This document shows positions 269 to 25,486 of a stretch of 25,505 bases of DNA, in pieces (within the stretch, counting starts at the first letter, position 1; every line of letters starts with the position of its first letter). This DNA comes from Ectocarpus siliculosus (Eukaryota; Sar; Phaeophyceae; Ectocarpales; Ectocarpaceae): the NCBI GenBank assembly GCA_000310025.1, contig FN649743.1, positions 2,880,454 to 2,905,958 of the forward strand, written 5' to 3'. Made by a program: the position numbers and the translations under genes. The notes under the pieces were generated by a model. That model saw only the letters and a program-made list of their open reading frames with translations, ran no database searches and had not been told where the DNA came from.

Positions 269-2897
269 GGTGGTTTGGCTTGGTACGGAGGCTAGACGCA
301 GACGTCGAAGCGAGGGTGGGGGCCGGCATCGACCCTAGGGAGAGCATTTTGCGTACTTATGTTTTGCATGCCTTAGCGGTTAGACCTTTGACCACGCGTC
401 CTCAAGAGGGCAGAGCATTGGGAGAGCCCGGGGGGATGGTTTGGGACGGAAACACGAGGCACCCAAGCATCGAGGAGGGCCGGGGGTGAAAATTCTGCAA
501 ACTGGAGGGCGAAAACGGAGGATTTCATGGGAGGGCCAGGGGGCGGGGTGACGTTTGGTTGGAGTTGCTCGGGTGGGACGTTTTGTTGAGGTGAAGGTGG
601 GAATGATGCGACGAGGAAATGGGGGCGGAAACGGGTGAACCGGTTGTAGGAGTATCTGCCGTCGAAATACCTGCGCCGACCACCGCCCATGTACAGTACC
701 CTTTGAGTGGGAATTTTGCTGCAGTTGGAGACAGGGCGTGTTCTCGCAGATGTAGAGCAGAGCCAGCGGGTAGTGAAGGGGCGGGGCGAACTGGGCATGA
801 CGCCAACAATGGTATAAACTTTCATTCATGGTGATGCCTGTGAACGCGGGTGGTGCAAAACCCAAGTTCGACGGAATGGAAGGGCACAAAGTCGAGGCAC
901 CAAATCTTCCAACCGTAGCATCCTCTTCCCCTAAATTACTCCGGCAATATAAGATCGTCACACGTAGGCCTATTCCAGTATGTTATTGAAAACCCTGGGT
1001 CCGTGGGGACGGGCGAGGTACAAATATTCATAAATCCCTGGTGAATCTCTCGAGCGCTGTCTGCATAATCTACAACCCCCCCCGGGTGTGCCAGAGGGCG
1101 CCTACCTTTGTGTACAAGAGTGATGAGGTACGCGAACAGCCGATGCTACGGAAGCGCCCTCTTGGCAATGCAGCGCGCGACAAACGAGAATCGCGCGCGC
1201 CCGAGTCAACGGGACGCCCCGTTCTGCCGTATGTGAGGATTTATGCCGTGGGGTGTCGAGTTGTTAACGAATGCGCGCCAAAGCAAACACAAAGATTACG
1301 ACCTGGTCTTCTTTCTGACGAGCCCGTCGCCGCCGTGCTATCCAAGGGCAAGAACGTAGGGCCACGGAAGAGGATACAGTTTCATTTTCAATACCTCAAG
1401 CCACTTCGGATCTTGTGAATCAGCGAAAGTGAATTTCTCCGTCATATCATTCGGATGTAATGGGGTTGGGTGCTTTGCAAGATCTGAGTAAAAAATCGGC
1501 GGTAGAGTGCGTAATCTTGGGCAGGGTTCCGTTGGGACGCGGTGCGAGCCAAACAGTGCGTCCAGGTGCCAGAATGAGTCACCAACTCGCACAACGTTGT
1601 TAGATTATGCTATGCATACAACAATTAATTTTGGTATCGGCAAAAAAAAAAATGGCAACTTGCGCCGGGCAACCGTGCCTTTCATCTAAGAAACCCTCGG
1701 TATCGTTTTGAAGACGGTGTAGAGAGCACAGGTGAGATGGAGATTCGCACACAACAATTAAACCATACCTGTGTGCAAAATAGTGGGCGTGTTTCTTGTT
1801 GTATCCTTACGACGACGGTTTAGTCGAGAAGAAGGCGGCGGGGAAAGACGGAAAACCATCGACCAATACTCAATGTGATGCTTTATTTAGGCTATTGGTA
1901 CTACAATAAACTGCGTGCTGCCCGAAGCCAGGATTCACACGATCCTTATCCAGGGACACATGAGACCCTCTAGCCCTCAAACTACACGTAGGCATGTCAC
2001 TTGCATCAATCTTGGTGGCCCAACTGCCGCGCGAAGAGAAAACGGATGCGAAATATTTCGAGCTCTAGTCTAATGGCTTGATGAAACCTGCTGAAAACCT
2101 TTGATGTTGGTATTCGTGTAGTTTATTGCATCTGTATACACTATCAATCTTGTCGGGCTAAAACGAACTCAACCAAATTATTCTTCAATTCTATATACCC
2201 TTGACTTCATTCTTCTCACATTATATATTGACGCCCAAGGCCGAGGGTAGCGCTGCTGTCTGTACCATGGCGAAACAATTATGATTCCTCTTTCTCCCCC
2301 TCTCGTCGGGGGTCACTCCCAGCAAGAAAATCGGAAACCGCGCCCGCTTGCTAAGTAGTTAAGTGCTTCATGCTCAACATGATATCATAACCTAAGACCT
2401 TGAACACCATTTGTGAGCCGGGTCAGCAAAAACTTATTCAGTCGCCTTTGGTAGCCGACGGTATTCCTGGGAACAAACATTGACTTGTACGGACCGCAGC
2501 CTCGAAACTACGAAGAGGGTCTTAGCCTAAAGTGTATCCGGAAACAGATATTTCCGGCTTCGAACTACAAACGCGATGGTCCGATGCCTTCAGAACGGTC
2601 ACCAGATCCACATCCCCATCCGCAGCCGCGAGCAGCTGGGCCTCTGACAAGGCAAATTGCGCGGGAGGAGATGAAAGCGTGAGCGCAATGTGTGGCTTAG
2701 GAAAACCGCGACACGCGCAAACGGTTGATTGAGTGGGTGAAGAGATCTTGTAGCCCCGACAAAACGCACAGTCATACGAGGGGACAACTCTGATTTCATC
2801 CGTCTAAGAGTACCGAACTTCTGCCGATTCTCTCTGAAAGATATTGACCCCGCGGCAAGTGAGCGGGGTATGCCGCCTAGGGTTGATATCAGCGCAG
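269..2897. other. Intergenic stretch, no supported gene
   Basis: Several open frames of 60-190 codons lie here on both strands, but they overlap one another, lack recognisable domains and do not chain through splice sites. The stretch from about 1600 to 2480 is AT-richer and has many stops in all frames. It probably includes the 3' untranslated region of the minus-strand receptor-RGS gene at its right end. No tRNA, rRNA or mobile element was recognised. Confidence 0.6.
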
Positions 2898-5800
2898 TCA
2901 CCCATTTTTCCTGCAGGATTTACTAGGTGAAGAAGAGGACCGCACTCGAAAACTGTTGGAGCGCATCCCAGAGGTTTCTGCGTTAGAATTCCCCCCTACA
3001 TAGTCACAGGAAAACGCACCCCGGTCCACAGCTACGCGTCTCTGGAACTTGTTTAGCAGATTTTGCTCCAGCATCCGGACGATCTCGTCGAAGGGTTCCC
3101 CTAGTATGCCGATCCGCTCCTCGAGGCTGAGCTCGTTGAAGGCGTCCCTGTGGTTCGGCGCAAATACCGACCGAATGAAGTCTGCAGTATGGATGTATCA
3201 AGGGCCGGCGATCGTTGCAGACATCTACTGAGACCCCCGAGCCCACGATGCCAGCACTCTGACACTCTAGCGTACGCTGAACTCAAGGTGAAGCGATGTG
3301 CTTCACACCGCCTGGGTGCGCGTGTTTTGAGACGCGGGTACCCATCCTTGAATCGCGTGACCCAAAGGGCTTGGGGCTACCGAGATAGCGGGATCACCTT
3401 GTTCCGAACGCCAAGATGCGTGTGCTCATTGAGCTTGATATGTTGATCTCGTCGGGTGACGTGGGAAGCAGGTATTGGTTCAGGATGAACAAGAAGGAGT
3501 TGAACTGCTCGTCCTCGGGGTCGTTCGCGACCTGTGGGTAACACAACATGGTGCGCACATACATGCGGTGAGCCTATGGAGCAGAGAAGATTATCGACTG
3601 CACACAGACTTCACACACACACGACCAACACCGTTTCAGTTGACGTCGGATAGCAGGCGGTATCTCTGTTCGCGAGGAATTCGATCCTCGATCCTGCACA
3701 AGGAATGAATGCCCCGAACATCTCAAGCACGCCGCCGAATCGATGTTCATATGTAACGTCTACATAGTCCATCCCGCAGAGCGCAGAGAGTGAATGAGCT
3801 AGCTTGTGTGTGTCACTGGGTAAAAGTAGCACCATATCTTTCGTATTCTGTGTCTTGCACACTTCATAGAATACGCACGAGGCTTGGCGCAATCCGTTCG
3901 TAGCGGACAACGTCGACGAGGAAATCCCAGCTCTCCATGCACAAGTTCTCCTGACAGAATTTTCCAAACTGCTGAGCCAGTTCTCCACCGCCGCTTGCGA
4001 GCCGTAACACGCCGCATTCATCCGACGCCTGCACCGTAAATACTTCTTCAACGGGAACCACGGTGGCCCTGAACCATTCCTGCACCCCGCCACGGTGAGC
4101 TCTCGCCATGGGAAGCAACAAGCTGCGTCGAAGCAACCGCCAACGCATTGGGTAAAGATTATTATCGCGAAGGCGACCAAAATAGAAATGGAGCGTTGGC
4201 TTCATGGACGCCCCGGCAGCAGGAGAGGATCGAATTGCCCCATAAGCTGTCGTTCGTCCTCGCCAAGAGGGAGGGAGGCCTCATGACATAGCATGCGCTA
4301 CATAGTATCACGTTCCGCTAGGAAACCAAAACTTACGTCAGTCTAGGAAACGCACAGACGTGTCTTGCTCCAAAACCAATCACTTCGCACTACTTTTCAT
4401 CTCACCCCCAAACCCCTGCGTTGATTCCGAACAGGAGCGATAGCACCTCAACTACCACATGAAATGCAGGTGTGTTTGACAACACGTCCAACTCCAACAG
4501 CACTTGGAGCACAAAATGTGTAGCTGAGTGGAGCGCAGGGAGAGACGGGAAGGTGGAATATTCAGGAACAGCGTGAGCAATTGATGAATGAATCGAAACA
4601 GCATCACACAGTCAGTCGTCGCTGGGACGTGGTACTCTACAACAGAATGTGCCAGCGTTTGCTCTCTCTGTCCTTTTTGCACAGCGCGGAAATACCCGCA
4701 GCCACCACGGCCTCAGCCCACCTCCCTACATGGAGTGTGGTCGATAATGCATGGCATCATATACAATACGAACCGAAGACACAGAACCACCATGTGGAAG
4801 ACATCGTGGTCTATTGGTTGACAGAGAGCTCTTCACTCCGGGCCACGACGTCCGTTCGCCCTTCGAATGCTTGCGTCGGAAACCCTCCACATAGAGAAAA
4901 AATATGAGGCCATTTCCGCGTAATTATTTTCCTCACTTGCGATGGTGCTGCCAACGATCATCGAACAGCACAACTCCTCGCGAAGCTTGAAAGCGTCATT
5001 TACGCGTGATATCCGTATGACCAAAATGGACAGTGGCCCTCCGGCCACAATGAGTACTGCTCCCCCCAGCATGGCGTCATCAAAGTAGAAGCACTCTCGC
5101 ATGTCACTGTAGAGAAGAGATACCATATTATTCGGTTGAGCTGGCGGGTTCACGAGGTTGGAGGAGAAACGCACCTATCTTTAACCCACGTTAATCGTGT
5201 TCGGTACGACAGTCGTAGCTACTCCACCGGCGTGCATACATGCTGTCACAGATAAATGTGGTTACTCGTCGGGGCAGAGGGAAGCGTCAGGCGGTGAAGG
5301 GACCTTTTCACCGTGCACCTCCTTCAAGCCCGTCAGTATATAGATATGAGTGCGACGCAATCTTGCTTGGCGTGTCTATGCAATAGGAAAGAATCGTTCA
5401 CATTAAACACTCATCCGTGTACAAAGAAGCCGTCCGCTCTGATAGGCCCAAGCAGTGATTGTGTGGTGTCACCTCGAGTAGTGTGCAGGATCGTCCCCGA
5501 AGAACAAGCCGGCTCGGATGGTGAGCACAATGAAGGTCAGGACCAAGACGCCCGTTGCATGTTTTCTCTTCACGAATTTGGCGTACTTCAGCCGATACTT
5601 GCGATTGTACGCGATCACCAATCGGACGGCCCGGATAAAGTACGGCATCGTGCCAAACTGGAGCACTGCGGCCAGCCAAAGCCCAAGCATGCATTTATTT
5701 ACCGCAGGTGACGGCCGACAAATGTCGTGAAGGGAGCAGAACCGTGTGCACCGCGGTGTAAGCCGACGCTTGGTAGTTGTAAACAACACGTTGACTGAAG

Positions 5801-7911
5801 GATCGTATTCGGGAGGGGCGCACTGCAGCAGCATTCACAGTACAGTAAGACGGCAGCTTCCATTGCGCCTTCCCTGATATTACCGTCGTACGGAGATAGA
5901 AGCGAAAAAACGACACCTACTGCACCTATCAATAATAGAAGATGAGAGTGTCAAGAATGTAGAACTTTCAAGTAGTGCGTGTGACCGTAGTACATTGAGC
6001 AAGTTCAGATTACACACTGTAGCAATGAAGTGAATGTATATCATATTTGAGTACACACTGTCTGTCTACGGCCGTTTGGTAATCGCGTTGTTGCCCGGCG
6101 TTTTACCAGCCACTATGTCGTATGGATCCAAGCGCTGTTCTACTTCTCGCTCGGCGATACCTCTACCATCGACGGTGCTCCTCAGCATTGCCGCGTGCGA
6201 ATTGAGTTCAAAACTCTCATGTGCACACATCACATTGCAGGTACGTAGTCGTTGCGATATGTTGCTACATACATCGAACTTTGCAGGTATTCACGGGAAA
6301 CGATTTGAGGGCATATCATTTTCTCTTCATTAGGCCCTTCCCTTTACGAGACAGGAAGAGTTCTTGTCTCGTTCTTCATAAAGTTATCAGCTCTCACTCC
6401 ACGTACACAACATTTCTGCCGTGTAGGAGCTCCAATCCGTGGCCACCCAGAAGGTCTGAGGCGCTTTCCTTCTTGTTTTGCTTGCAAGGAGTAAAAGAGT
6501 GGGACTGCTCTGTTGCTTCGCTACTGTGCACACGTCCCGTTCGTATTGAAGTGACTGCCACGGAGGGTGGGTGTACTTGCACCCTGTTGCGAATATCTGT
6601 GGTTCACAAAGAACGGTCTATTTTGTCATTCCCCGCATCAACGCCTATCATTTTTCCTTTCATCGTCGCGGCGGGATGCCATGTGGCCCACCTCATTCCC
6701 TCTCTACTCGAGAGCATGGAACGAGCTCGAAACACCCGTCTAACGGACAGCTAGCTTATCCTCACCCTTGCGTGTTCTCAACAGTTTTCTCATTCTGGTC
6801 GCCCAAGGAGGCCGGCCAATCCCCCCAGCCGTTTAAACTACAAGAGACTAAACAAGGAATAGTAAAGACTAAAGTTTGTAGGATATTTGGCAAGAGTGAA
6901 CGTATTATTTTCGTCTTACCGACGTATGAGATGATGAAGGTGACCGGGCAAGGTAACGTCGTGGTACCCATGCTTTGCAGCAGCCAGTTCAAGAGCACGG
7001 ACGCGACCAAAATGAGGCACGTCACCTCAGTCATCAATACTAGTGAAGGCGACCTCGCCGCGATCTCGAACTCTTTCCTATGAGCGACAAGTCTCCACAG
7101 CAAGGCCAACCACCCGAGTACGACGGTCACCAATGACAGAAAAAGAACCACGGGCACCCAAACCATGTTCGAGATATGCCGGCGTCCAGACTTGCCGTCT
7201 GGTCGACTTGGTTTTGCGCATTCAACTACTGTAGTCGGGATGCCACATCCGCGCGCGGAAACTACTGTAGGAGCTGTACAAGTTCAAATTGCGGTCTATC
7301 CAGTGTCAAACGCCACGAAACAACGCGATTGGCTGATGAGGAGGTACAGTCCATGACGTTATGTGCCGATTCCGGCGTACCTGTTTAGGTTAATCCGTGA
7401 TCGAACACGCACGTGCCGAACGCGGACATCGAAGACGCACAAACACGTGCTGCCTAGGTTATGTCCCAGAGACCAAATCGAAAATAAGTTCACGACACCG
7501 TACAAAGCCCATGACAACGCAGTTTCCTCAATCATGTGGACATGAATATACTCGTCGTTGTGTTGGCGGTGCACGGGGTCATGACGCGGGATGCTGCGTG
7601 ATACAGCAGATTGTCATGATGGCGATGGTCGATCACCCACTCAAGCGATGCATACATGCCTGCGACGAGTGAGTGTGATTCTCTTCCAGACGAATATTGT
7701 TGTCGATCACAACCCGCCAGACCCATCACCAGGGGCGATCCTACTGTACAGTGCGTGCGGATCGGCGAGCGTTACATTACGGGAAAAAAACGTACGTACG
7801 TGAAGAGGTTCGAGTTGCGGCGGAATAAGCTTCCGGGGGCACGTGGCAGAGGTTGGTACAGCATTGGAGCAAACACAGCCACACAGCTGCCAGTTTCAAA
7901 GGGTTGCCCAT
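2898..7911 (-). CDS. Seven-transmembrane receptor fused to RGS domain (multi-exon)
   Basis: This gene predicts a membrane protein with a C-terminal regulator-of-G-protein-signalling domain, the layout known from plant AtRGS1 and some protists; RGS domains speed GTP hydrolysis by G-alpha. Exons read on the minus strand are 7911-7800 (signal peptide MGNPLKLAAVWLCLLQCC), 7659-7552, 7380 to about 7277, about 7190-6920 (TM1 VWVPVVLFLSLVTVVLGWLA, TM2), 5665-5473 (TM3 with PYFIRAVRLVIAYN, TM4), 5106-4937 (TM5, then DAFKLREEL), 4523-4406 (TM6/7), 4199-3879 (last hydrophobic segment, then RGS start FGKFCQENLCMESWDFLVDV), 3531-3398 (FLFILNQYLLPTSPDEINIS) and 3181-2898 (DAFNELSLEERIGILGEPFD). Phases agree across 7800/7659, 7552/7380, 6920/5665, 5473/5106, 4937/4523, 4406/4199 and 3879/3531. 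Three places do not close: about 7277-7190, between the last hydrophobic segment and the RGS start (about 4144-4029), and 3398/3181. The start ATG sits in AAGATGG. The stop could instead lie further on, because a GTGCGT donor follows GACCGGG in the last exon. Confidence 0.85.
3181..4028 (-). other. RGS domain region of the receptor-RGS gene
   Basis: Three exon pieces together match the RGS fold order. The first (about 4028-3879) has the early helices with a Phe-x-x-Phe-Cys core, then the Glu-Ser-Trp-Asp-Phe-Leu and Tyr-Glu-Arg segment. The second (3531-3398) carries the Tyr-Leu-x-Pro-x-Ser-x-Asp-Glu-Ile-Asn-Ile signature typical of RGS helix 5-6. The third (3181 to about 3040) has the late helices, ending near MLEQNLLNKFQ. 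The Glu and Asn residues that usually contact G-alpha seem present (QEN and EIN). The loop between the second and third pieces is longer than in compact RGS domains. Confidence 0.85.
7791..7800 (-). other. Tandem 5' splice sites, exon 1 of receptor-RGS gene
   Basis: On the minus strand exon 1 runs into CACGTACGTACGT, giving two overlapping GTACGT donors four bases apart (exon ends at 7800 or 7796). Only the first, phase 1, joins in frame to the exon at 7659. Confidence 0.5.
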
Positions 7912-8358: not shown

Positions 8359-8404
<46 letters not shown>

Positions 8405-11206: not shown

Positions 11207-14202
11207 TCACCCAAGCACCTGGTATTCTGCCCGAATAGCGTCTCGGTCGAAGATGGCCCCTTCAAGCCGCCGCGTCTTGTTCTTCAACCGAGCTTTCAGC
11301 CTGGCCACCTTTCGTCAACGCCACAGAGGATGCCGCCAAGGTTCAATCGAGGACTAGGGTTGGCTACGCACTGTACAACGAACGTGTGTAGAGTACGATA
11401 GGAGATCAGTACAAGGCATCACGAACGAAACAATAATTCCCGAGTGGGAAGCGACACTTTCATACTGCTGTTGTTGCAGGCTCACGTGGCAACGAGGGGA
11501 CCAATACCACCCCCCCTTAGCTTGGTGCTATCGTTGTCAGCTCAGGGCAGCACAGTGAAAGGCAATACAAAAACCCATATTTCTCATCGGGGAGAGCAAG
11601 ACCACCCGCCCATGTTTCCCCTCCAGAAAGCACGAGAGCCCCAAACCGTACCAATCTTGTTTTCGAGGCACTTGACGCTCTTAAAAATGTCATGAACCGT
11701 TCCTTTAACCCCCCTCGACCAGATCAAGGAGTTTCCAAGGGTCAAAGCGTATACGGTCCCCCTCGATCGATAGCCAGCCCGAGACAACTAACCGACCAAG
11801 ACACCCCGAACCCATGCCGCACTGACCTCGTCCTGCGCGTCGCTTGGAGCCCTCCCCACCCCCGCCACGTTGACGTCTGCCCCACTCCCCGCCCCCAAAG
11901 CTTCCTCCAGCCGGAGGGTCTCGACCTCCACGCGCAGCGACAGCGCCAGGTCCTTGGCCCGCTCGAGGGCATCTTTCGGTAGGGTGCCCCCGCCCCCGCC
12001 GCCGCCACGATCTTCTTCGACTCCGTCGAGCGCAAGACGGGCGGCGTCACCAGCAGCAGCAGCTCCGGCAACACGAGCACCAGCTGCCCTTTTTGGCGAG
12101 CGCTCATCATCGTGGGGCGATTCTCGCCGTCGGAGGGGCACGGCGGCTGCGGCGCCTATGGGGGGGGGCGTGGTGGTGACGGTTTCATTCTCTCTCCGCC
12201 ACTGATGTCGCGTGTGCCGGGCCTCCGCTTCGGTGAGCCGGGACCGCAGCTCGTCCAGCTCTTTGAGGTCGGCCTCTCGCGCCAGTCGCGCCGCTTCTCC
12301 CGCCGCAACCACTCGCCGTCTCGCCTCGGCTAGGGCCTGCACAGGCAACGGAGATTTTTGGCAATTCTCAACCGCCACGTCGTAGATGCCCAGCGTCTCG
12401 AGCGCGTGGTGTGCCTTCCGAGAAATAACTCTGAGGGTTTTCGTTTTATTTTGGGGATTATTTTTTTTTTGAGCGGAAACATCGGTTTTCATTCTGGTGT
12501 CTACTCAGAGAGGGCGAAATAGTTCTCGATACGACAATCGTTGTATCTCTCTGCTCCGTGTTGCTATTTCTCAGTCATGCGAATCTATACCGTCGTCGTG
12601 CCCGCCCTGAATGGCCGGCCTGCTTGCCTGCTCAGCCGGCGAGCTCTCGGTGAGGTTATTCACAAGGGTATCTCTGCCGTAAGGGCTTCTGTTTATGACG
12701 GAAGAACCATTTCCCGAGATTTTAGCCTGAATATTCACAATCCTAGTCGTGAAAGTAAATTCCTGTCAAACGCACCGTGTACAGCTCCTCCTGCCGCCTC
12801 AGCTCGGCGGCCAAACCTTCCTCCACGAGGCCGCCCTCGTCGTCAATATCCAACGTCCTCCGGTCAAACGCAACGACGGCGCCCGACGACTCCGCCGCCA
12901 CCACAGCCGAGACTTCCTTTCCTGTCGTTCGAGAACTCGCACATCGCCCATGAGCACCGTTCTCCAGAGAAGCCACGGTCAGGGAAGACCTGCACGGTTT
13001 TTCGAGAGAAGGAGACAACCTACCGATCTGTATCCGTGCCGTGGGTGCGGGGACGCCGCTATTTGTCCTGTAGGACCGTCTACCGTGGTCACATTGTGAT
13101 TATCATTCCCGCCCCGTGAAACAATCGGAGATATTCATGCGAAGTGTAACGATGTCCGTGGAGTTCATATAACGACCCGCCCCTTCCCGCCGTGCACGCT
13201 GCCATGAACCACCCTCTGTCCCTGCCCGTACCACACCCCGCTCCCCCGGTGCCCGTTTTCTTTGCCCTTGCTTGTACCGAAACCGAATTTTCCGCCCGAT
13301 AGACGTCTAAAGTTCCCCTGCCGCTCAACGTGGAAATAAATGCCCCTTGGCTTGCGTGCGTACCTCCTGGCGTTGGCCTCCGTCCACAGCGTCTTGGCCC
13401 GCAGCGCCTCGACCCGTGCGCGCACAGCGGCCGCCTCCGCCGCAGCGGCCTCCACCGCCGAAGCCAATGCCTCCCTCTCGTCGTACAACTCCCGCCACCC
13501 AGCCGTCTCCTTCTTCCCCGCCGCCGCTGCTTCGCCACCGCCCGCCGAGGGCGTTGTGCTGTCCCAGCAGCCTGCGACTACAGGGTGCCCAACCCGTCGT
13601 CGATTGCTGCCAGATTCAACGGTACTACGGACACCGGCGGCGTGCGGCGGCGCTTCCCCTTGTAGTCCTCCGACAACAGTCCCGTCGCTTCGTTGTCGAC
13701 GGCGGCGGCGGTGGCGGGGCTGCTCCGTAAAACCAACGCCAGCGCCGCCGGCGGCGCCACCACCTCGGGGCACACAGGGTGCTCTCCCCACGCGCTCGTA
13801 GCAGCGGGGCTCGCGGGTGTTAGGGACCGCCTCGCGGATGACCTTGAGCCGCCGCTCCATCCTCTCGTTCTCGCGGGCAATGCACTCCTGCCGCTTCACT
13901 TTCCGCCGAAGGAGGGCGGCCCCGTGATCATGGGCTCTCCAATCCCTGTTGCCGCCGCCGCTGTTCGCGTGCCCCCCCCCCCTCTTGGCTCTTGTCGTCC
14001 TTCGATCTCCTTTTCCTCGCGCTCGCCCTGCAGACCGCGTGGGCATATCTGCCAGGCCCAATCCTCCCGGTTTTCCCGCGCGGCGCGCACCCGTTTCGTC
14101 GAAGACGACCCCGCCGTGCGGCGGGACGGGTTCTCGTTCCGCGCCAACCGTTGCGTACGGCGCCGCTGCCGTTCCTACGGCTTCCTTGGGGTATCCTCCC
14201 AT
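11207..14202 (-). CDS. Coiled-coil protein with CFAP97-like segment (4 exons)
   Basis: Exons on the minus strand are 14202-13364, 12989-12776, 12336-11827 and 11308-11207, joined with phases 2, 0 and 0. Donors are GTACGC, GTGCGT and GTCAGT. The predicted product is 554 residues. Residues 1-95 are basic and Gly/Arg/Ala-rich. Residues 97-127 (RRKVKRQECIARENERMERR and on) resemble the conserved CFAP97/Hemingway motif of cilium-linked proteins. Residues about 236-350 and 352-400 are Ala/Glu/Arg-rich coiled coils. Residues about 400-490 are low complexity (Pro, Ala and Gly runs), then helical again to the end (VARLKARLKNKTRRLEGAIF). A strong 3' splice site with CTAAC branch sequence and pyrimidine tract ends at 14257, so exon 14256-13364 has a spliced leader or a further coding exon upstream. 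The first in-frame ATG after it is 14202. The last exon either stops at TGA 11209-11207 or is spliced at CTTGG/GTGACC (11211). A ciliary or flagellar role is only a guess; the splice structure is firmer than the function. Confidence 0.65.
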
Positions 14203-14256
14203 CGTTTGAGCGGCCGCGCGATTTCGGGGTTCGGTTGGACATGCGAGGTCTTCCGG

Positions 14257-14291
14257 CTGGGAGATAGAAGGCACAGAGAGATGGTTAGTCA
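14257..14291 (-). other. 3' splice site with branch point, coiled-coil gene
   Basis: Read on the minus strand this is a TGACTAACC branch sequence, then a pyrimidine-rich run and CCCAG, followed by the exon at 14256. It shows that the long open frame extending left of here is intron, and that at least one exon lies further upstream (higher coordinates). Confidence 0.65.
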
Positions 14292-16556
14292 CTTGCGTGA
14301 AGAACCAGGGAGGGTGTTCGTGGGTCTACGGACATAGTTTGGATATGTTAGCCGCGTACAAGTGTGACGCAGACGGTGTAGAACCTTTTAGGTAGGGGTA
14401 CGGTGATGATGCACCGGGACCCCCCTGGTAATGGGAAGCGCGGGGGGGGGTTCCGTGACTGGGGAAGAGGATCACAGGGGATCGTGACGACTACGGCGCT
14501 GGTTCGTTCCGATGGCGGTGTGAAGAGTGGTCAGTGGGAGCATGGTGTCGTGCACACGGAATATTCTAGGGTTTCCTGCTTGGGGGGTCTTACTCAACGG
14601 TAGCATATTTCCTTACAAAAGGCCTCAGGTTGGAATGCAAACTGCTACCTTCCACACAGGGCCAATTTCTTCCTCACACTCGACATTAACCCTGGTGCTG
14701 TGCCCCACGGCCGTCGCCCAAGTTGACCACGGGACTGGAAAATCCATAGGCTGATACCGAACGCGACTTTTACGCTGCGTGGATTTGCAACAATACGTAC
14801 AGGCCTCCCGTTCTCTACCTCTTTATCCCGCTACCTCCTCCCCTCCCCGCCCCACCTCTCGCTCTCTCTCTCGCTCTCTCGCCGCTCTCTCACCGGTTTT
14901 AAGGAAAACGACACCGAAAGCCTCAGCTGAAGAACAAGCGGTGCGTTCCCCGCGGTCTCAACCCTGCCGAGTCGATCAGCCGCTCGAAACGCGCCTGAGA
15001 CGTCCCCGCGCAACAACCTCCAGGAGCCGCTATCGGTGTTATTTCTGATGATGCCATCGTTATTGTCGTCATCGCTGCTGCTGATGTTGATACTGGGTCG
15101 GGCGTGGGTGCCCGTCGCCGCTTCCTCCTTATCCACGCCACTTTTTTGGGGTCCCGGCGCGATGTCGACCGGCTGGAGGCCTAGGACGGCGTTGCGCACG
15201 GGGAGGACAACCTGTAACGTGCAGGCGGCGACGCAGCAGCGAGAGGCACGGGAGAGAGGGAGGGACGCGATAGCCGTTGCTGGGTTTGGCACGAATGGAG
15301 GCCGCTGGCTACTGAGTGGGCCGGGTGACGGCTTGTTTGGCTTAGTGACTCGCCCAGAGAGAGATTTGACGTGCGTTTGCGGCCCTGGAGCGATTTCGGG
15401 TTGTGAAGAATGTCCCACCGAGTCATGTACGTTTGTGGACAACCCTAGGACAACGAGGTTTCGACGAAGAAAAAATGTCCTGTTCTTTTGGCCGTCGAGT
15501 GTCAAACGTGTCTCCCTTTCAGGAGATATATTAGTAGCCCAGAATCGGTCGCATTCTTCGGGGTTATCACCAGAATATGTGGAGATATAAGCTTGCAATA
15601 CCCGCCAAAGAAGCGAATGGTTCAGCTACGTGACTGTTGTGTGAGGCTCGCCTGCCCCAGGAAGCCTTCGCGATCCAAGCCCCGCGATGTGGCTCCTCTT
15701 TTGCCGCACCACCTCCGGTGTACGGAGAATAGCACTGCTGCGTTCGCCAGCTCACCCAGCCGTCCACCATGGAAGGTCTGCATCGTAGTTTCGCCAGAAC
15801 GCCGCGAACGGTTCGATGATGTTGGCGGGGGATGGGGAGGGTGTTACCAGAGAATATGGCGTATGGACCACAATAGCAGCGGTATCGATAGCGAATGTTG
15901 TTCGCTACTGCAAAGACGAAGCACCTAACGTGGCAACGACAAGAACGACGAGAAATAGGATTATCGCGGACTACGTTTTCCCATTTATGGGAGAAACGCC
16001 AAACGAAGAAAAGAATGAAGCTCAAGAGCGTTTGGATGAAAACGCGCACCTCGCACTGAAATTCTCCGTCAGGCCAACCACCGCCGCCACCGCCGGCGCT
16101 ACACGTCGCTGGTGCAGAAGATCCCGTTGTGTGCAGGAGGGTCTTGCAACGGAACATGGCGTTGGTCGTCGACGCCAACCCCCCTTCGATAAAGCTTATC
16201 TGGGTGATCGAATTCAGCACCATACTTATTGCACAGGAGGTTGAGATAACAGCGCGGAGTCTAAACGTGTGCATCGTGGTTGCCTGTGTCGGCTGTGGTA
16301 CTGGTCTGTACGAGTATTGAGAGTTAGGAACGTTGGTCAGCGAGAGCTGCGCAATCATGTTCGAGACGGCGGTCGTATTTCGTCTACAGCGAAAACGAAA
16401 CAGGGAAAAATATGCCAAACAGTCTGAATCTTCGGACAAGACCTTTCGGCTTGTAGACCAGCTCGACCGACGAAGAATTCGAGGAGCTGTGAGAATCAGA
16501 TAAAATCGGCAAGCTTTCGAGACTGGGTAGCGACGTGTTGCCAATGCCCAAAATAT
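14292..16556. other. Gap between genes with long unassigned open frames
   Basis: This stretch holds a G9 run (14442-14450), a CT-rich tract and a candidate GTACGT donor on the minus strand at 14798-14793, which could end a 5' untranslated exon of the coiled-coil gene. It also holds overlapping open frames on both strands at 14831-15598, and a 325-codon minus frame at 16544-15567. None could be tied to a domain or spliced into a neighbour. Confidence 0.4.
14823..14892. repeat. Pyrimidine-rich (CT)n / (CTCG)n tract
   Basis: The + strand is almost pure C and T with TCTC and CGCTCTCT units (GA-rich on the minus strand). It lies about 600 bases upstream of the coiled-coil gene's first ATG, just before a GTACGT donor-like site, so it may belong to that gene's promoter or leader. 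Confidence 0.7.
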
Positions 16557-19500
16557 TCAGGCCGGTCCTGCTTCAGCTCGTTTGTCGACCCCTGTGCGAG
16601 GTGCAGAAGGGGGATGCAGGTTTTCGCTGTACGATGTCCTCTCAGTTTCCGGCAGATTCGACGCTTCCACAAAGGAGGATGGCTCACTACCACCGAACGA
16701 GAACACTAGTCTAGCCCCTCAAGCTCAAATTCATGACAACCACAACGAGAGGTCAATACAAATGACGCTCTCTGCCGACGAACTCCATCGAACCACTGGC
16801 TCTGATCTATGGTCCCCGGCTATCCGCCCCCACGCAACACATTGCACGTCCGACTGCGGGCACTCATGAAGCGAAATAATCCAACCGACTCCAGCAGCGG
16901 ATAAGCCGTCTTGTATAATCATGGAGGCAACAGCAACGATGACAGCGTTCCTCTGGACGTGACACTACCGGAATCCAACTGTTACACGGGTCGCCGACCT
17001 TCACGAAGACTCCCTCCTCCCCCGCGGTCTCGCCATCCGCGCGGAGCGCTGCTGTTCCACCCCCTCCTCTGCCGCGTTCCACCCCTTCGACGGCCCCCTG
17101 CAACATTGCCGTATCGTGGACGAACCCTTCTAGAGCTTTTAGGCCGTCTTCCGGGTTGTCACTGCCGCCGACCACAGCGCCACGGCCATCGGTCCGCCCG
17201 TCTCCCGTCCGCCACGGCGAGGTGCGACATGGGAGTGACTCGTGGTTTTCCCCGGGTGTGCCGACACCTGATCCTGCGGAGGCAAGCATGGCGTTCCGAA
17301 GCGCGGAAATAAACGCCTCTGTCGTCTTGTCTAGCGCATTGGCTGTGGTGACGTGTGCTCCTTCGTTGTGAAACGAAAAGGCTTCCTGCGTGTGAAACCA
17401 CCGATCGTCAGGGTTGTTAGGCGACTGTCAGGGCAGGCTTCCGTTTCTTCATCCATCCAGATGTACGGCTTTCACTTCGGGGATTGAAGTACAGGGGCGG
17501 ATGAATCATAGCTTTTCCTCGACTACAGAGCAGACCCAAATCAACCGATCAATGCCATGCTACGGGTACTCTGTTCAGAGTTGTGTGTTGAATGCGGGGA
17601 GGCGCTTACATAACGAAAAGAAGCTTGGGAATGTCTGTCTTTGTGTGAACTCAGTCGCAAGGGACACCGGGCTTGGTCTTAGCCCTTGAGTGCGGAATGA
17701 ATACCACGGGGCCCGCTTTCGGGCACAAGGTGTCAAAACAATATGACCAAACGTTTAATCCTCGCTCGCTGTGTGTACCAACATGGTACACTGCGCTTTA
17801 ACCAATTGCTTCAACCGTTAGCCCAGCAAGAAGCTCTTGTGACCTAGGTATGCATAGCAATAGCTGAGAGAAAACACACAACTATTACCGGAGAAAATGT
17901 ATCCCCACTACCTACACTTACCTCTCCGTGATACATTTTATCGCATACCATTCATCAGACCAGACCAATTCACGACAACTTACTTCTTCGTCCCCTGCAG
18001 CCTCTGAGAGCCGTTCCCGGTTCCGGTCCTCGCGGCGACGCCAACTCGGGGACGAGCGGCGGGAGGCGCCAACGAGATCCGCCCCCCTTAGCGGCGTCCA
18101 GTCCGAGCTGTTTTCTGAGAGTGAAAATTTCTCCACGGAGCTGTCATCTCCTCCTCTGCCTCCTTTGCTCGCGGCCAGTCTCCCTCCTCTGCGTCCTTGT
18201 CCTCCCGGTGTTTGCTCGTCGTCGTCGTCATCGTGTCCGAAGTTGCCACCGTGATCTTCGTTTCCACCGTAGAAGCCGTCGCGGTCGTTGCTGCTGCTGC
18301 TGCTGCTGCTGCTGCGGCAGGACGCGGGCCCGAAAATCCCGGCCTCCTCGTCTTCGCTTCCGAAGTCGAAGCTGTCGTAGTCGATAGCGCCTTTGTCGTC
18401 ATCGTCGTCGTTCGAACTCCAGGCCGAGCCACTCCTGTTTCCCGCGCCGTCGCGACCGGTTGGTTTTGTGGCTGTCCTTTCTCTCGTTTTTCCAAACTCT
18501 CCGCTTTGGAAGCCGTTGTCGTCGGCGACGTTTCCGGCGGAACGGTGTCTGGAACGTTCCATGCTCAGGTTGGAACGTGGGCTCGTGTTGCTGCCGTCGC
18601 AGTCTGGAGGCGAGGCAGGCCGCCCGATCTCCCTGGTGTGCATGTTGAGCGGGGAGGGTAAGCGTTGTTGCCTCGAGGACGGCGTGGTGAGACGTGGATT
18701 GAAACCGATGTTCGAAACGTGCAGAGCGAAGACAATTCAACAGTGATATGGACGCCATTCACTTCTTGTGACGGTTACGTATGTTATGATGTTCAGAACA
18801 AGTTCGCCTTGTCTCCGCGTGGTCCCCACGCGGGCGCTTAGAAGGAGTGAGCGACTACTGTTCGGTGGCTCGTTTCCCGTCACAAACCAACGAAAGATAG
18901 AGCTGTGTTCCCTTCTCGTGGTAGGCGTGGCTTCACTGGTGTCGTGTTCTTGGCCTTTGGCACCTTTCAGGTTTTGCCCTTCGCACGTCGTTTTGTACAC
19001 AAGACTGCAAGCATTATTCATAGCACCAAAAAATGACACACAGCAGAGAACACGCGCAACGTACATGTGCCACACCTGTACGACATTGCGGCCAAGCCGC
19101 TGCCGGTTGGCGTTGGGCTGTCCGGTTCGCTGGTAGCTTTGCCTCGCTGCCCTATCCTTCCGTTTTCTCCCTCCTCTTCCGGCACACCGGGTTTATCATC
19201 CCGCCGGTGAGCAACCCCCTGAGCAGCAGCAATGATAATGAACCCGGGATCAACAACCTTGTCAGTACCCTCCTGGCGTTGGTGCGGCTGGTTCTCGCCG
19301 GACAAGGCCACGATTGTCATTTCCCGTGGGAACTTACGACGATGCTTGCACAATCAGCATAGTACAGACTTCGTTTTCGTGCTCGAAAATACGAGAAAAG
19401 GCCCCACAACAAAACGCTTCAACATACTGTAACGACGAACCGTACACACACCTCAGGGGGGTTGCGGTTGTCGCCTCCATCTGGCGGGGACCACAGCGGT

Positions 19501-20141: not shown

Positions 20142-22648
20142 AAGACTAACAGTGTTTGTTCGAGAAAATCGTGGGGGCTGGAGTAACAGTTTTTTTGTGC
20201 CGCCTCGGCACCGCCAGCCTCGTCTGTATTATGACGAGCGGAGATGAGTCGTGTTGTCAGCCCACCGGCGAGATGGCGAGACATTCAGTGTGCGTTCGTC
20301 CCCCTCTAATCTGGCGCCAACAGTGGACACATCTTCCGGTGGTAGACTGTCAGGTTGACGTAAATATTCATCAGCATACGCCTATCGGAGTTTCTGTTCA
20401 TTGTAGTTGTGCCCCACCTGTCCTGGAGGAAGAAAGCTGAGCCACAGAGATTATCGAAACCCTTAGTCTAATGAAGAGGGTGAATTGACCCGTCAATTCA
20501 AAACTCCGCGTAGCAAACAAGCGACGTTACAGGCTGGTGAGAAAATTGTTTAAATAGCAGAAATCAATCTTACATCGCCGCTCGCCTTTAGCCGTTATAT
20601 GATAGCAATGCCTTGAAGCTTTATGGGGGTTCAAAATACTTCGGACGTAATGGAGTTAAACATAGCCTGTCTCCACGTGCTTTAAGGCTATGCAGACTTC
20701 CATGACATGCTCGAACAGGTTCTTGTGACAGGCTGCATGCAAATCGTTGCCAATCAATAATCTGGATATAGCGCTGGTTTGCAGCCACAAGGTCCGAGGG
20801 CACTACTGTTGCTGAGAACTTCAAAAGGAGTTAGCCAACTTCATTGTGAACTTCGTCGAACTACATCCACGTCCAGCGTGAATTGCACGACACCATCTCG
20901 TATGATCCAACTGTCATGCCAAAACACGACTCGGTGTATCTTTGGCCTGTCTCACGGGACGGCTGTCCGACGCACTGGTTCAGTTTATTTTCCATGCTCA
21001 CCCCAAGTGATCGTGCACACCGAGCTTTTGATGGGACTCCGTCTAGAAGCGATCTTCCTTTGCATTGCAGATCCTTGCTGCTATGGTGTGCAATGCACCA
21101 TACACCAAACCCGCGGCCCTCTCACACATCAAATCTTGATCGCGAAGAAAAGTGTCTGAATGCGGGGCAATTTCGGAGAACTGTGCAGTAACCGCCACAT
21201 TGGCAAACGCCTCCGGTGCAAAGTCGAACTCCCCAGAGCGTTAGAGCGCGCAACGTACCGACTTGCGGCGGCTCGCGCGGTTCCGTTGTTTGTACGTGGA
21301 CGGACCGGTTTGGGGCATTGCTGCTCGGCAACATCTAGGACGGCCTGCCTGCTTATACCATGGTGAGAGGTCAGCGGTGGAACAAGCGCGAGTACACTAC
21401 ATCACTTCAAGCAGTTCCGCTTACCTCTGATACGAGAGTTGAACCTTTTCGGAGAACACGCCGCCTTGCAACGGCGTTGCCAACGTCCTTCCTTCTTCCC
21501 TTCCTGCTGATCCACGGTGGCATGTCTCTGCACGACTACCGTTTTTCCCCTTGCATGCGGCTTTTTTTGTGTGAGCCTCTGGGCAAAAGGTATGGCCGAG
21601 CACAGAATTTGCCCATGGAATAGTCTACACTCAGAATACAGATTTCACACCGCTGTGCACTCAGCAGGCATCCTCGGGAGGTTACAGCAGCAGACTCCCG
21701 CATAGCAGGATACGTATCGTGCGACCTTAACTCCACTCCCGTTGACACTGCTGTCGTTTACTCGAGCCGCCAACGACGTTTATTGGCGCTGATTGTGGGC
21801 TCCATCCACAGCGTGAAATGAAAACGGGCGTGTTGCGAACGAACCTCGCTAGTCTCACCGGCCCGTGCTCTTGGCGCCTATGGCCCGCCGATGCTCCCCC
21901 AACACTCTGTGCATGCTGCCCTAGGCTGCTGCTGTTGAGAGCATTGCTGATTCCCAAGTTGTCACACATCGACGGGGTCACACATCGAAAAGCGGAACTG
22001 TTCGGCGCAGAGACACCCTGCTTTGCTGGAAACTGGAAAGGCTGTTTTTGTTATACATCTCGCTCGCTTTCATCTCCCGGTGTTGGAATCATTGACGCTT
22101 ACTATATACGCGACTTTACCCCCCTCCCCCCCTCGTGTTGCCGCCTCCCTCGCCCTGTTACCGTCACGACTACTGTAGATCCGTTTCCTCCTGCTTCAAA
22201 ACCGCCAGGGTAAAACCCGCCTCTCGAAGTGGTGGATTCCCTTGCACGATGAGAAGGAGAAGGTGGGAGGACGGACGATCCAGCAGAATTCGGTCTACGC
22301 TTAGATTTTATGTATTGTAGACACACGAACACGACGCCAGTCTTCGTATGAAGCCCAGCTTGGGGTGCTGTCCAAAGCCGGATTTGGCGCACGGAATGGT
22401 ATATGCATCCCCTGCGGACAGGATTGTCGACAATGTCTGGTTCGAGAGGATGGTTCGAGCCGAGCGTTTGGCCCCCTTTTCGGTGGCCTGCGTGTACATT
22501 GCAGCGGCGAAATATGCAGACCCCCCCCGGGCCTCCTGTCTTGCCGTATAGACGATTTTCGACTGCGAAGGCGGGGATGCCGTAGTTTCCGTTCAGAGGC
22601 TGGTCGAAAGAATTGCCTTCTGACACACCATCGCCAGAGCTTCACAAT
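20142..22648. other. No certain gene; a few exon-like segments
   Basis: Open frames overlap on both strands. Protein-like minus-strand segments at 21242-21044 and about 20830-20660, and a + segment at 22405-22551, are described under findings. No start-to-stop model with consistent splice phases could be assembled. No repeat or RNA gene was recognised. Confidence 0.45.
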
Positions 22649-25486
22649 CCCCCCCCCCCTATATACCTACAACAGAAGAGAGTCATACAGAGTAGGCGAC
22701 GCAGGAAAATGTACAGATGGAGAATAGATAAGCTAGAAGTAGAAGAAACGAGGGTAGAGTTCCAAGAAGAGATGGCTATAAACGACAAGAAACTCTCGGA
22801 GTTGATGGAGGCAATGGGTACACCGAAGGATGCCGAAGGCCGGGACCAGGCCGGGTCTAGAATCATAGAAGGGTGGGAAGAGCTGGTAAACACAACAGCA
22901 AGCAGAGTTCTAGGTAGAAAGTTGATAGTTTGTAAGAGAGCAGTGAAGTGGTGGGACGAAGAAATCAAGCAAGCAATTCGAGTACGTAGAGAGTCACACG
23001 CAAAATATGCGGCAGGGAAAACAGATGCAGGATGGAAGGAGTATGTTGAAAGTAGAAAGAGGGTGAAGGAGTTGGTCGTGAAGAAGAAGAAAGGGTTGTG
23101 GGAGGAAGTAGTCCAAAAGACTAACGAAGATTTTGAGGGGGGGATGAAGCAAATGTGGGTAGGAATTCAAGGGATAGTGGGCAACAAAAGAGGGGGAGAC
23201 ACGGAAATAACGACACTAAGATCTGCCGAGGGTAAGATGGTAAGCAGTTCTAAAGGAAAGAGGGAAGTACTAGTAGAGCACTACCGCAAACTTGGGACAC
23301 CCACCACCAACGACAACTTCGACTCGGAGTTTGAGAAGGAAATCAACTCGTGGGCAGAGGAAAACGTTGAAAGATCTCAGAGGGAACGTAGTGATGTGGA
23401 CGGGTTGCAGGGAGAGTTCACACGAGAAGAGGTAGAGGACTGCGTAGCGAAACTCAAGAATAGAAAAGCGGCAGGGGCTGATGGAATTGTGAACGAGCTT
23501 TTGAAACAGGGGGGGGAGGGGATGATTAACATGTTGATCCGGATATTCAACTGGATATGGAAACACGAGTACGCGCCGAAGAGATGGAGAGAAGGAGTAG
23601 TCGTGAACCTGTTCAAAAAGGGGGATAAAGCTGACCCGGGGAATTATAGAGGGATAACCCTGTTGAGCACAGTGGGGAAACTGTTTGGCAAGATGATAGA
23701 CAATAGAATGGGAGACATGTTGGAGGGGAAACAAAAGATCAGCGAAGGACAAGCTGGATTTAGACCAGATCGTAGTTGTGTAGACCATGTATATACGTTG
23801 AGTAAAATCATCCAAGGTAGGAAAGACGCCGGGCGTACGACATACTGTTTCTTCCTCGATATACAAAAAGCCTACGACACCGTATGGCGCAATGGATTGT
23901 GGAAAAAGATGTGGGACATCGGCATCCGGGGGAAAATGTGGAGGATGTTGAAAAAGATGACAGAATGCACAAGAAGTGCGGTGATGTTGGATGGGGAAAT
24001 TTCGAAGTACGTGGATATACTCCAAGGAGTCGCACAGGGCTGTACGATGTCACCCACTCTATTTAAGATTTACATCAACGATTTGATAAGGGCGGTTGAA
24101 GCAGTAAGACAGGGAGTTCAAGTAGAGGGAAAGAGTGTGTCCGGACTGATGTTTGCAGATGATTTCGTGGGGGTATCCGAAACACCAGAAGGGTTGCAAG
24201 AACAAATAGATGCGGCGGTAGGATACACCCGAAAATGGAGACTGTCGGCGAACGTAGGAAAATGCGCAGTAGTGGTCTGTAACGAAGATAAGAAAAATCC
24301 CGTAGAATTCAAATGGAAATGGGGGGAGGAAGAACTACCGGTAGTAGACAAGTATACGTACCTGGGAGTAGAGATTTCGAAGGAGTGCTCATGGGACGCA
24401 CACATAGCGAAGTTGATTGGGAAGGGTAAAGCTCAGATAGGCAAGATGGACGAGATCCTTACGGACCCACACCTAGACACTAGGATTAAGAGGTGCATTC
24501 TCTTGAAGGTGATTGTACCTAAGCTAGAGTATGCAGGAGAGATATGGGAAGGTAACGAAAAGGCCGTCAAGCAGCTGGAAACGGTGCAGATGGCAGCGGC
24601 CAAGAAAATACTTGGATGTTCAAGTACAACGAGCAACACTGTATTGAGAGCAGAATTGGGGATGTACTCTCTTAAAACAAAGAGAGACATGCAGAAGTTG
24701 AAGTGGCAGTACAAGGTAAGTAGAATGTCGGACGATAGACTACCAGCCATGGTTGACGAGGCAGCTTGGGGAAAAGCGACTCCAGGGAAGAAGGGAATCA
24801 GATGGGACAAGGTGGTAGAGAAGGTTTGGAAGGAGATAGGAGACGAGGAGGAGACGTTGGACACGGAAGGGTTCGGGGGGTTCAAGACGAAAGTCAAGGA
24901 GATGCTAGAGAGTAGGGAGGAGACAACCCTTCGGAAGAAGGTACGAAGCGAAGACCACTTGGAGATATACGGGAAGTTGAAAGAAGGGATAGGGATGAAG
25001 ACGTACTTGGACGGCCCCATGGACTATGCGAAAAAGCTGAAATTGCAATTTCGAGTAGGCGATCTGGAAAGGCCAGAACGGAGGAAGAGGTATACCAGCC
25101 GTAGGAGAGAGGAAGAGGAGGATAGACACACATGTCCATGTGGCAAATCGGAGGAGAGTAGACCCCACATAGTTGGGGAGTGTGAGTTGTACAGGAAGGA
25201 AAGAGAGGATCTCGAGGAGGAAATGAGACAGAGAGGGTGTGACATGGACAAGTTTGGTAAATTAGACAACAGCGAAAAAACGATCGCGATAATTGGGGAT
25301 AGATGGTGGGCACAAGAGGCCCTAGAGGACGGGGATAAGATGTGCAAGAAATTTTTATGGAGTTTGTGGCAGAAACGTAAAGAGCTCCCAAATGTTGGTG
25401 GTGTCTCTACTAGGGGTAGGAACGGTGCTCCGTCTCGAAAGGGACGCGTGGTCCATGGTCAAATGACTACGGCAAGCGACAAATGA
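22613..25486 (+). CDS. Reverse transcriptase of non-LTR retrotransposon (N-terminally truncated)
   Basis: The product is 957 residues. RT blocks appear in order: KNRKAAGADGIVNELL (282-297), YRGITLLSTVGKLFGK (345-360), GQAGFRPDRSC (379-389), FLDIQKAYDTVW with its catalytic Asp (414-425), QGVAQGCTMSPTLF (471-484), the catalytic FADD box (514-517) and KYTYLGVEI (580-588). A zinc-knuckle-like CPCGKSEESRPH with a later Cys (841-857) follows, typical of the region after the RT in APE-type LINEs. The first ATG (22613) lies in flanking DNA. Codons up to about 22660 read the host sequence and the C11 run (Pro-Pro-Pro-Pro). The first ATG inside the element is at 22709. RT activity could remain, but without the endonuclease it would not be autonomous. 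The sense strand is strongly A/G-rich, unlike the neighbouring genes. The clade cannot be fixed by eye. Confidence 0.95.
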   Translation: MPSDTPSPELHNPPPPIYLQQKRVIQSRRRRKMYRWRIDKLEVEETRVEFQEEMAINDKKLSELMEAMGTPKDAEGRDQAGSRIIEGWEELVNTTASRVLGRKLIVCKRAVKWWDEEIKQAIRVRRESHAKYAAGKTDAGWKEYVESRKRVKELVVKKKKGLWEEVVQKTNEDFEGGMKQMWVGIQGIVGNKRGGDTEITTLRSAEGKMVSSSKGKREVLVEHYRKLGTPTTNDNFDSEFEKEINSWAEENVERSQRERSDVDGLQGEFTREEVEDCVAKLKNRKAAGADGIVNELLKQGGEGMINMLIRIFNWIWKHEYAPKRWREGVVVNLFKKGDKADPGNYRGITLLSTVGKLFGKMIDNRMGDMLEGKQKISEGQAGFRPDRSCVDHVYTLSKIIQGRKDAGRTTYCFFLDIQKAYDTVWRNGLWKKMWDIGIRGKMWRMLKKMTECTRSAVMLDGEISKYVDILQGVAQGCTMSPTLFKIYINDLIRAVEAVRQGVQVEGKSVSGLMFADDFVGVSETPEGLQEQIDAAVGYTRKWRLSANVGKCAVVVCNEDKKNPVEFKWKWGEEELPVVDKYTYLGVEISKECSWDAHIAKLIGKGKAQIGKMDEILTDPHLDTRIKRCILLKVIVPKLEYAGEIWEGNEKAVKQLETVQMAAAKKILGCSSTTSNTVLRAELGMYSLKTKRDMQKLKWQYKVSRMSDDRLPAMVDEAAWGKATPGKKGIRWDKVVEKVWKEIGDEEETLDTEGFGGFKTKVKEMLESREETTLRKKVRSEDHLEIYGKLKEGIGMKTYLDGPMDYAKKLKLQFRVGDLERPERRKRYTSRRREEEEDRHTCPCGKSEESRPHIVGECELYRKEREDLEEEMRQRGCDMDKFGKLDNSEKTIAIIGDRWWAQEALEDGDKMCKKFLWSLWQKRKELPNVGGVSTRGRNGAPSRKGRVVHGQMTTASDK
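22649..22659. repeat. C11 run at 5' edge of the retrotransposon
   Basis: Eleven consecutive C on the + strand. Downstream the sequence abruptly becomes purine-rich and enters the reverse-transcriptase frame, so the run marks the 5' junction of the truncated element. Confidence 0.9.

What the first reader, a model, noticed from the sequence alone, without database searches (positions are those of the whole stretch)
2898..7911. Receptor and RGS domain fused in one gene
A signal peptide, seven hydrophobic segments and an RGS domain are encoded in order along one minus-strand gene, with most exon phases agreeing. Such 7TM-RGS proteins are established in plants (AtRGS1) and scattered protists, and link ligand sensing to G-alpha deactivation. 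The N-terminal extracellular part (exons 7659-7552 and 7380 onward) shows no known ligand-binding domain to my eye.
Basis: partly seen in the sequence, partly recalled or inferred. Interest (0 to 1): 0.7.

Follow-up and report, generated by a model that had tools for sequence, protein, structure and literature searches.

The report
Membrane receptor fused to G-protein off-switch
One gene in an unnamed eukaryote appears to join a seven-helix membrane receptor to an RGS domain, the part that switches G proteins off, a layout already known from plants, fungi and some protists, but here with a receptor half that looks more like the glutamate/GABA receptor class than like the plant one.

Summary
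On the minus strand, eight GT-AG exons (7911-7800, 7264-6920, 5665-5473, 5106-4937, 4523-4406, 4122-3879, 3531-3398, 3147-2898) give an unbroken 521-residue frame. It encodes seven hydrophobic helices, with loop charges that mostly fit N-out/C-in, and a near-complete RGS domain (PF00615, 30.5 bits, cut-off 23.9). Exon 7659-7552 is optional.

The architecture is known (plant AtRGS1, fungal GprK, Naegleria, Trichomonas), so this is a new member of a known kind. Pattern-preserving shuffles matched it in 2 of 27 cases, at E 0.63 and 0.96 against 1e-4. No similarity to the 7TM of recalled AtRGS1 was detected. The modelled N-terminus is 70 residues, without a recognised ligand-binding domain. Most likely a membrane-tethered GTPase accelerator for a Gα. 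Expression, ligand and activity were not testable.

The parts
7800..7911 (-). Exon 1: start codon and a hydrophobic N-terminal segment (possible signal peptide, residues about 4-25)
   Evidence: Open frame, GT donor, ends in phase 1; hydropathy run at residues 4-25. No signal-peptide predictor was available.
7552..7659 (-). Optional exon: 108 bases, phase-neutral; may or may not be included
   Evidence: AG acceptor and GT donor, open in the matching frame; no Pfam match at E 1
6920..7264 (-). Exon: extracellular stretch, TM1, TM2 and the start of TM3 with Cys143
   Evidence: In phase with exon 1; TM1 7166-7095, TM2 7043-6975
5473..5665 (-). Exon: rest of TM3, basic intracellular loop 2, TM4
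   Evidence: GT-AG, in phase; loop has 10 K/R and 0 D/E
4937..5106 (-). Exon: extracellular loop 2 with Cys222, TM5, intracellular loop 3, start of TM6
   Evidence: GT-AG, in phase
4406..4523 (-). Exon: rest of TM6 and most of TM7
   Evidence: GT-AG, in phase; frame stops at once if the donor is not used
3879..4122 (-). Exon: end of TM7 (LLLPMA), linker and first part of the RGS domain; this exon carries the junction of the two modules
   Evidence: GT-AG, in phase; RGS match starts at 3977
3398..3531 (-). Exon: middle of the RGS domain, including Asn424
   Evidence: GT-AG, in phase
2898..3147 (-). Last exon: last RGS helices and a 39-residue tail with 11 Ser, to the stop codon
   Evidence: Acceptor at 3147 keeps the frame (3126 also would); RGS match then runs to profile position 110 of 117; tail counted
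2522..2643 (-). Possible alternative 3' exon reached from a donor at 3020, giving a different C-terminal tail
   Evidence: In-frame GT-AG; no Pfam match to this peptide at E 1

Best explanation
This is a single protein-coding gene for a 7TM-RGS protein: a short extracellular N-terminus, a class C-like seven-helix domain and a cytoplasmic RGS domain. SHOWN: an in-phase exon chain, seven hydrophobic helices whose loop charges mostly fit N-out/C-in, and a near-complete RGS domain. INFERRED: it sits in a membrane, probably the plasma membrane; the RGS domain binds an activated G-alpha there and speeds GTP hydrolysis, holding the G protein off; a small ligand or partner acting on the 7TM changes this activity or removes the protein from the membrane, so the G protein turns on. 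That is the AtRGS1 logic, with a receptor half related to class C GPCRs.
For: Phases agree over eight exons, 1566 nt to a stop. GC by codon position is 54, 43 and 66%, a coding-like pattern. RGS 30.5 bits, above the cut-off of 23.9; none of its three exons matches alone. The equivalent of AtRGS1 Glu320 (Glu376) and the Asn of the E-[IL]-N motif (Asn424) are kept in the alignment with recalled AtRGS1; their importance is recalled. The three intracellular loops have 4, 10 and 4 K/R; the three extracellular loops have 0, 1 and 0. 7tm_3 matches end to end, residues 6-239 to profile 6-238 of 251, E 1e-4, versus 2 of 27 shuffles at E 0.63 and 0.96. AtRGS1-type biochemistry is described in passages of PMC3386157 and PMC3718340.
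Against: No RNA evidence, and no homologue in the collections searched, so no exon boundary is confirmed by comparison. The 7tm_3 score is below its cut-off of 33.5, and falls to 19.3 in the full chain. Residues 55-70, just before TM1 and so on the outer side in this model, hold five K/R and one acidic residue; the loop count left them out, and they go against the positive-inside rule at that end. Exon choices were guided by the frame and the domain, so the agreement of phases is partly built in. Whether this genome encodes a G-alpha was not testable.
Confidence: 0.72

Rival explanations
1. Two neighbouring genes: a 7TM protein ending near 4400 and a separate RGS protein starting near 4200.
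For: The RGS exon's frame is open upstream to 4280 and contains an ATG.
Against: Reading on from the TM7 exon stops at once, cutting TM7 short. The splice 4406 to 4122 is GT-AG, in phase, and supplies the end of TM7 (LLLPMA) from the same exon that begins the RGS domain.
Confidence: 0.1
2. A conventional ligand-activated receptor that acts as an exchange factor for G-alpha and carries its own brake in the RGS domain.
For: Class C resemblance, a basic TM3 inner end (R164, R167) and cysteines at TM3 and extracellular loop 2. Ectocarpus, a possible relative, is reported to have six G-alpha paralogues and GPCR-like genes (passages in PMC3879662).
Against: The class C TM7 'PK' motif reads 'PM' here, and no Venus flytrap or other ligand domain was recognised. 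The passages read on AtRGS1 describe a GTPase accelerator, not an exchange factor.
Confidence: 0.2
3. A decaying pseudogene whose RGS end is out of frame.
For: With the strong-looking acceptor at 3181 the last RGS helices are out of frame.
Against: Acceptors at 3147 and 3126 keep the frame and give higher RGS scores; no internal stop in the 1566 nt; GC3 is 66%.
Confidence: 0.08

Closest known systems
AtRGS1 and plant 7TM-RGS proteins
   Same: Seven helices followed by a cytoplasmic RGS domain; similar length (521 versus 459 residues); RGS halves alignable above all 300 shuffles (recalled AtRGS1); Ser-containing C-terminal tail in both.
   Different: 7TM halves show no detectable similarity; recalled AtRGS1 has no 7tm_3 match at E 10, this protein does.
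Fungal class VI receptors (GprK)
   Same: 7TM followed by RGS (passages in PMC5008803 and PMC13308352).
   Different: Sequence not compared here.
Naegleria and Trichomonas 7TM-RGS proteins
   Same: Same fused order; 28 such proteins predicted in N. fowleri (passage in PMC9283941).
   Different: Sequence not compared here; a number of the Naegleria proteins are said to carry a GPCR proteolytic feature, not looked for here beyond the Pfam scan.
GPR158 with RGS7-Gbeta5
   Same: A class C 7TM without a Venus flytrap domain works through an RGS protein (passages in PMC8611064).
   Different: There the RGS is a separate subunit and the receptor has a PAS-fold extracellular domain; here the RGS would be part of the same chain. 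Functional analogy only; no homology of the pairing is claimed.
Stramenopile GPCR and RGS proteins: diatom class C-like GPCRs, oomycete GPCR-bigrams, Ectocarpus GRK
   Same: Class C-like 7TMs (PMC3727952), GPCRs fused to C-terminal signalling domains (PMC6033456) and an RGS-containing GRK (PMC3307776) are reported in stramenopiles; passages read.
   Different: The passages read list no RGS among the bigram types and report diatom C-termini without similarity to known proteins; a GRK has a kinase in its RGS domain and no 7TM, whereas no kinase matched here. That this window is from a stramenopile is itself an inference.

Membership tests
RGS domain (PF00615) | Profile score above the curated cut-off, near full length | tested here: met
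   30.5 bits versus 23.9, profile 12-110/117; 26.9 in the full chain
RGS domain (PF00615) | GTPase-accelerating activity on a G-alpha | not testable with these tools
   Needs purified protein
7TM-RGS (AtRGS1-type architecture) | Seven helices followed by a C-terminal RGS domain in one chain | tested here: met
   Hydropathy with helix boundaries set by hand; in-phase chain; RGS match; transcript not tested
7TM-RGS (AtRGS1-type architecture) | N-terminus outside, RGS domain inside | tested here: inconclusive
   Loops 1-6 fit, K/R 4,10,4 inside against 0,1,0 outside; but five K/R lie just before TM1 on the presumed outer side. No topology predictor was available
7TM-RGS (AtRGS1-type architecture) | 7TM domain homologous to AtRGS1's by sequence | tested here: not met
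   BLASTP best E 0.82; 253 of 300 segment-preserving and 148 of 300 full shuffles score at least as high. AtRGS1 was recalled; length 459 and Glu at 320 agree with recalled literature
Class C GPCR (7tm_3, PF00003) | Profile score above the curated cut-off of 33.5 | tested here: not met
   22.5 bits on the 7TM alone, 19.3 in the full chain
Class C GPCR (7tm_3, PF00003) | End-to-end collinear match better than composition and helix pattern would give | tested here: met
   6-239 to 6-238/251, E 1e-4; 2 of 27 shuffles match, best E 0.63
Class C GPCR (7tm_3, PF00003) | Cysteines at TM3 and extracellular loop 2; basic residues at the inner end of TM3 | tested here: inconclusive
   C143, C222, R164, R167 are in the expected places by eye; no residue-level profile alignment was available. 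Feature list from a passage of PMC3727952
Class C GPCR (7tm_3, PF00003) | PK motif in TM7 | tested here: not met
   Sequence reads LLLPMA, P then M
Class C GPCR (7tm_3, PF00003) | Large extracellular ligand-binding domain (Venus flytrap, Cache or similar) | tested here: not met
   70 residues before TM1 in the model, no Pfam match there at E 1; exons upstream of 7911 were not modelled
Fungal class VI GprK | Sequence homology of the 7TM | not tested
   No GprK sequence was at hand

The most novel reading that the evidence does not exclude
A class C-type 7TM domain fused in one chain to an RGS domain: a receptor-RGS fusion that arose separately from the plant AtRGS1 type, and a one-chain counterpart of the animal GPR158/RGS7 pair, in which a receptor without a flytrap domain switches G proteins off rather than on.
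Probability: 0.4. Interest if true: 0.6.

Novelty: new member of a known kind. Interest (0 to 1): 0.4.

Why it matters
7TM-RGS proteins are thought to regulate self-activating G proteins at the hydrolysis step rather than at activation. A member with a class C-like receptor half would suggest that RGS domains were joined to unrelated or distantly related 7TM modules more than once, and would give a natural single-chain system in which to ask whether receptor conformation controls GTPase acceleration.

Tried and rejected
Exon starting at 7380: rejected because of stops in the TM1 frame. Acceptor at 3181 for the last exon: rejected because it shifts the frame out of the RGS domain. Relatives: none confirmed in viral contigs or genome contigs; the latter holds bacteria and archaea, so absence there says nothing about eukaryotes, and both scans reach close relatives only. 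Solved structures: no phmmer match at E 10 for the 7TM or the RGS domain. NCBIfam: none at E 1. Origin of the window: no genome held, no tRNA or Rfam match, no relative of the LINE reverse transcriptase in viral contigs. A brown alga is my guess from intron length (mean 493 over seven introns), GC content and general look; it was not tested. Papers: nine searches of the held library showed no description of a brown-algal or class C-type 7TM-RGS fusion in the rows listed; several lists were cut (for example 20 of 1,170), only listings and passages were seen, and the comparative survey that I recall as Bradford et al. 2013 is not held, so it may already be listed there.
Full report
What is there. 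The minus strand from 7911 to 2898 was read for GT-AG exons. Eight exons (7911-7800, 7264-6920, 5665-5473, 5106-4937, 4523-4406, 4122-3879, 3531-3398, 3147-2898) give 1566 nt with phases agreeing and a single stop at the end, 521 residues. GC at codon positions 1, 2 and 3 is 54, 43 and 66%, a pattern usual for coding sequence. A ninth exon, 7659-7552, is phase-neutral and optional.

An exon from 7380 has stops in the frame that leads into TM1, so the TM1 exon must begin later. The natural-looking acceptor at 3181 leaves the last RGS helices out of frame. A listing of GT-AG pairs in that stretch shows four in-frame choices, donors after 3410 or 3398 with acceptors at 3147 or 3126; middle exons and other splice types were not listed. 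The RGS score rises from 28.8 bits (acceptor 3181 with an X at the join) to 30.5 (3398/3147) and 32.3 bits (3398/3126). I use 3147; the data do not decide between it and 3126. These choices were guided by the frame, so they are a model, not a measured transcript.

The RGS domain. PF00615 matches at 30.5 bits (cut-off 23.9), E 5.3e-7, profile 12-110 of 117, and at 26.9 bits in the full chain. Each of its three exons alone matches nothing at E 1, so the signal depends on the joining. No solved structure matches by phmmer at E 10, so the domain is divergent. Against the RGS part of AtRGS1 (recalled sequence) the global alignment beats all 300 full shuffles, z 4.7. Glu376 aligns with AtRGS1 Glu320 and Asn424 with the Asn of its E-L-N motif; that these are key G-alpha contacts is recalled.

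The 7TM domain. A hydropathy scan finds one N-terminal hydrophobic run and seven further hydrophobic regions, several of them split over adjacent peaks at the threshold used (15 rows); the seven helix boundaries were set by hand. With them, the three inner loops hold 4, 10 and 4 K/R and the three outer loops 0, 1 and 0, which would put the N-terminus outside and the RGS domain inside. Against this, residues 55-70 just before TM1 hold five K/R and one acidic residue. Among Pfam families the only GPCR match at E 10 is class C, 7tm_3: 22.5 bits, E 1e-4, residues 6-239 to profile 6-238 of 251. This is below Pfam's cut-off of 33.5, and 19.3 bits in the full chain. As a control the residues of each helix and loop were shuffled within that segment: 1 of 9 shuffles (E 0.63) and 1 of 18 (E 0.96) matched 7tm_3. 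The real match is thus more than a thousandfold better by E-value than any of 27, but it is still one weak profile match. Recalled AtRGS1 has no 7tm_3 match at E 10, and its 7TM is no more like this one than shuffles are (253 of 300 segment-preserving and 148 of 300 full shuffles score at least as high; BLASTP best E 0.82). Of the class C features named in PMC3727952 (passages), the Cys pair and basic TM3 end look present by eye; the TM7 PK motif is PM.

How it probably works. From the architecture, the RGS domain would act as a GTPase accelerator at the membrane, and the 7TM would tune or place it. In Arabidopsis the G-alpha activates itself, AtRGS1 speeds its GTP hydrolysis, and sugar and other stimuli uncouple the two or cause endocytosis (passages in PMC3386157 and PMC3718340). 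The 39-residue tail here has 11 Ser, which might be phosphorylated as in AtRGS1; that is inference. A rival is a receptor that both activates G-alpha and carries its own brake; nothing here excludes it.

What is known. 7TM-RGS fusions are described for plants (PMC3386157, PMC3718340), fungi (class VI GprK: PMC5008803, PMC13308352), Naegleria with 28 predicted members, and Trichomonas (PMC9283941); passages only were read. Class C-like receptors are described for diatoms (PMC3727952), GPCRs fused to other signalling domains for oomycetes (PMC6033456), and a GRK, which contains an RGS domain, for the brown alga Ectocarpus (PMC3307776). GPR158 is a class C receptor without a flytrap domain that terminates signalling through a separate RGS7-Gbeta5 (PMC8611064). 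Ectocarpus is reported to have six G-alpha paralogues and GPCR-like genes (PMC3879662). Nine searches of the held library showed, in the rows listed, no account of a brown-algal or class C-type 7TM-RGS, but a key comparative paper that I recall is not held.

Verdict. It is a new member of a known architecture. The class C resemblance of the receptor half is the one point that could raise its interest, and it needs orthologues and a structure to settle.

Noticed in passing
22586-25486, + strand: Long open frame of what looks like a non-LTR (LINE-type) retrotransposon, with a reverse transcriptase domain (PF00078, 115 bits); no relative in viral contigs.
   Followed up: partly
8360-8403 and 18289-18315: Perfect trinucleotide repeats, CTG x 14.7 and TGC x 9; the first lies about 450 bases upstream of the gene's modelled start.
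   Followed up: no
11788-14325, - strand: GC-rich open frames that by eye look like exons of a charged, coiled-coil type protein; of the two tested, one has no Pfam match and one only a chance-level one (E 0.17).
   Followed up: partly
2522-2643, - strand: Short in-frame candidate exon beginning EAQLLAAADGDVDLV, which reads by eye like the start of an ankyrin repeat; no Pfam match.
   Followed up: partly
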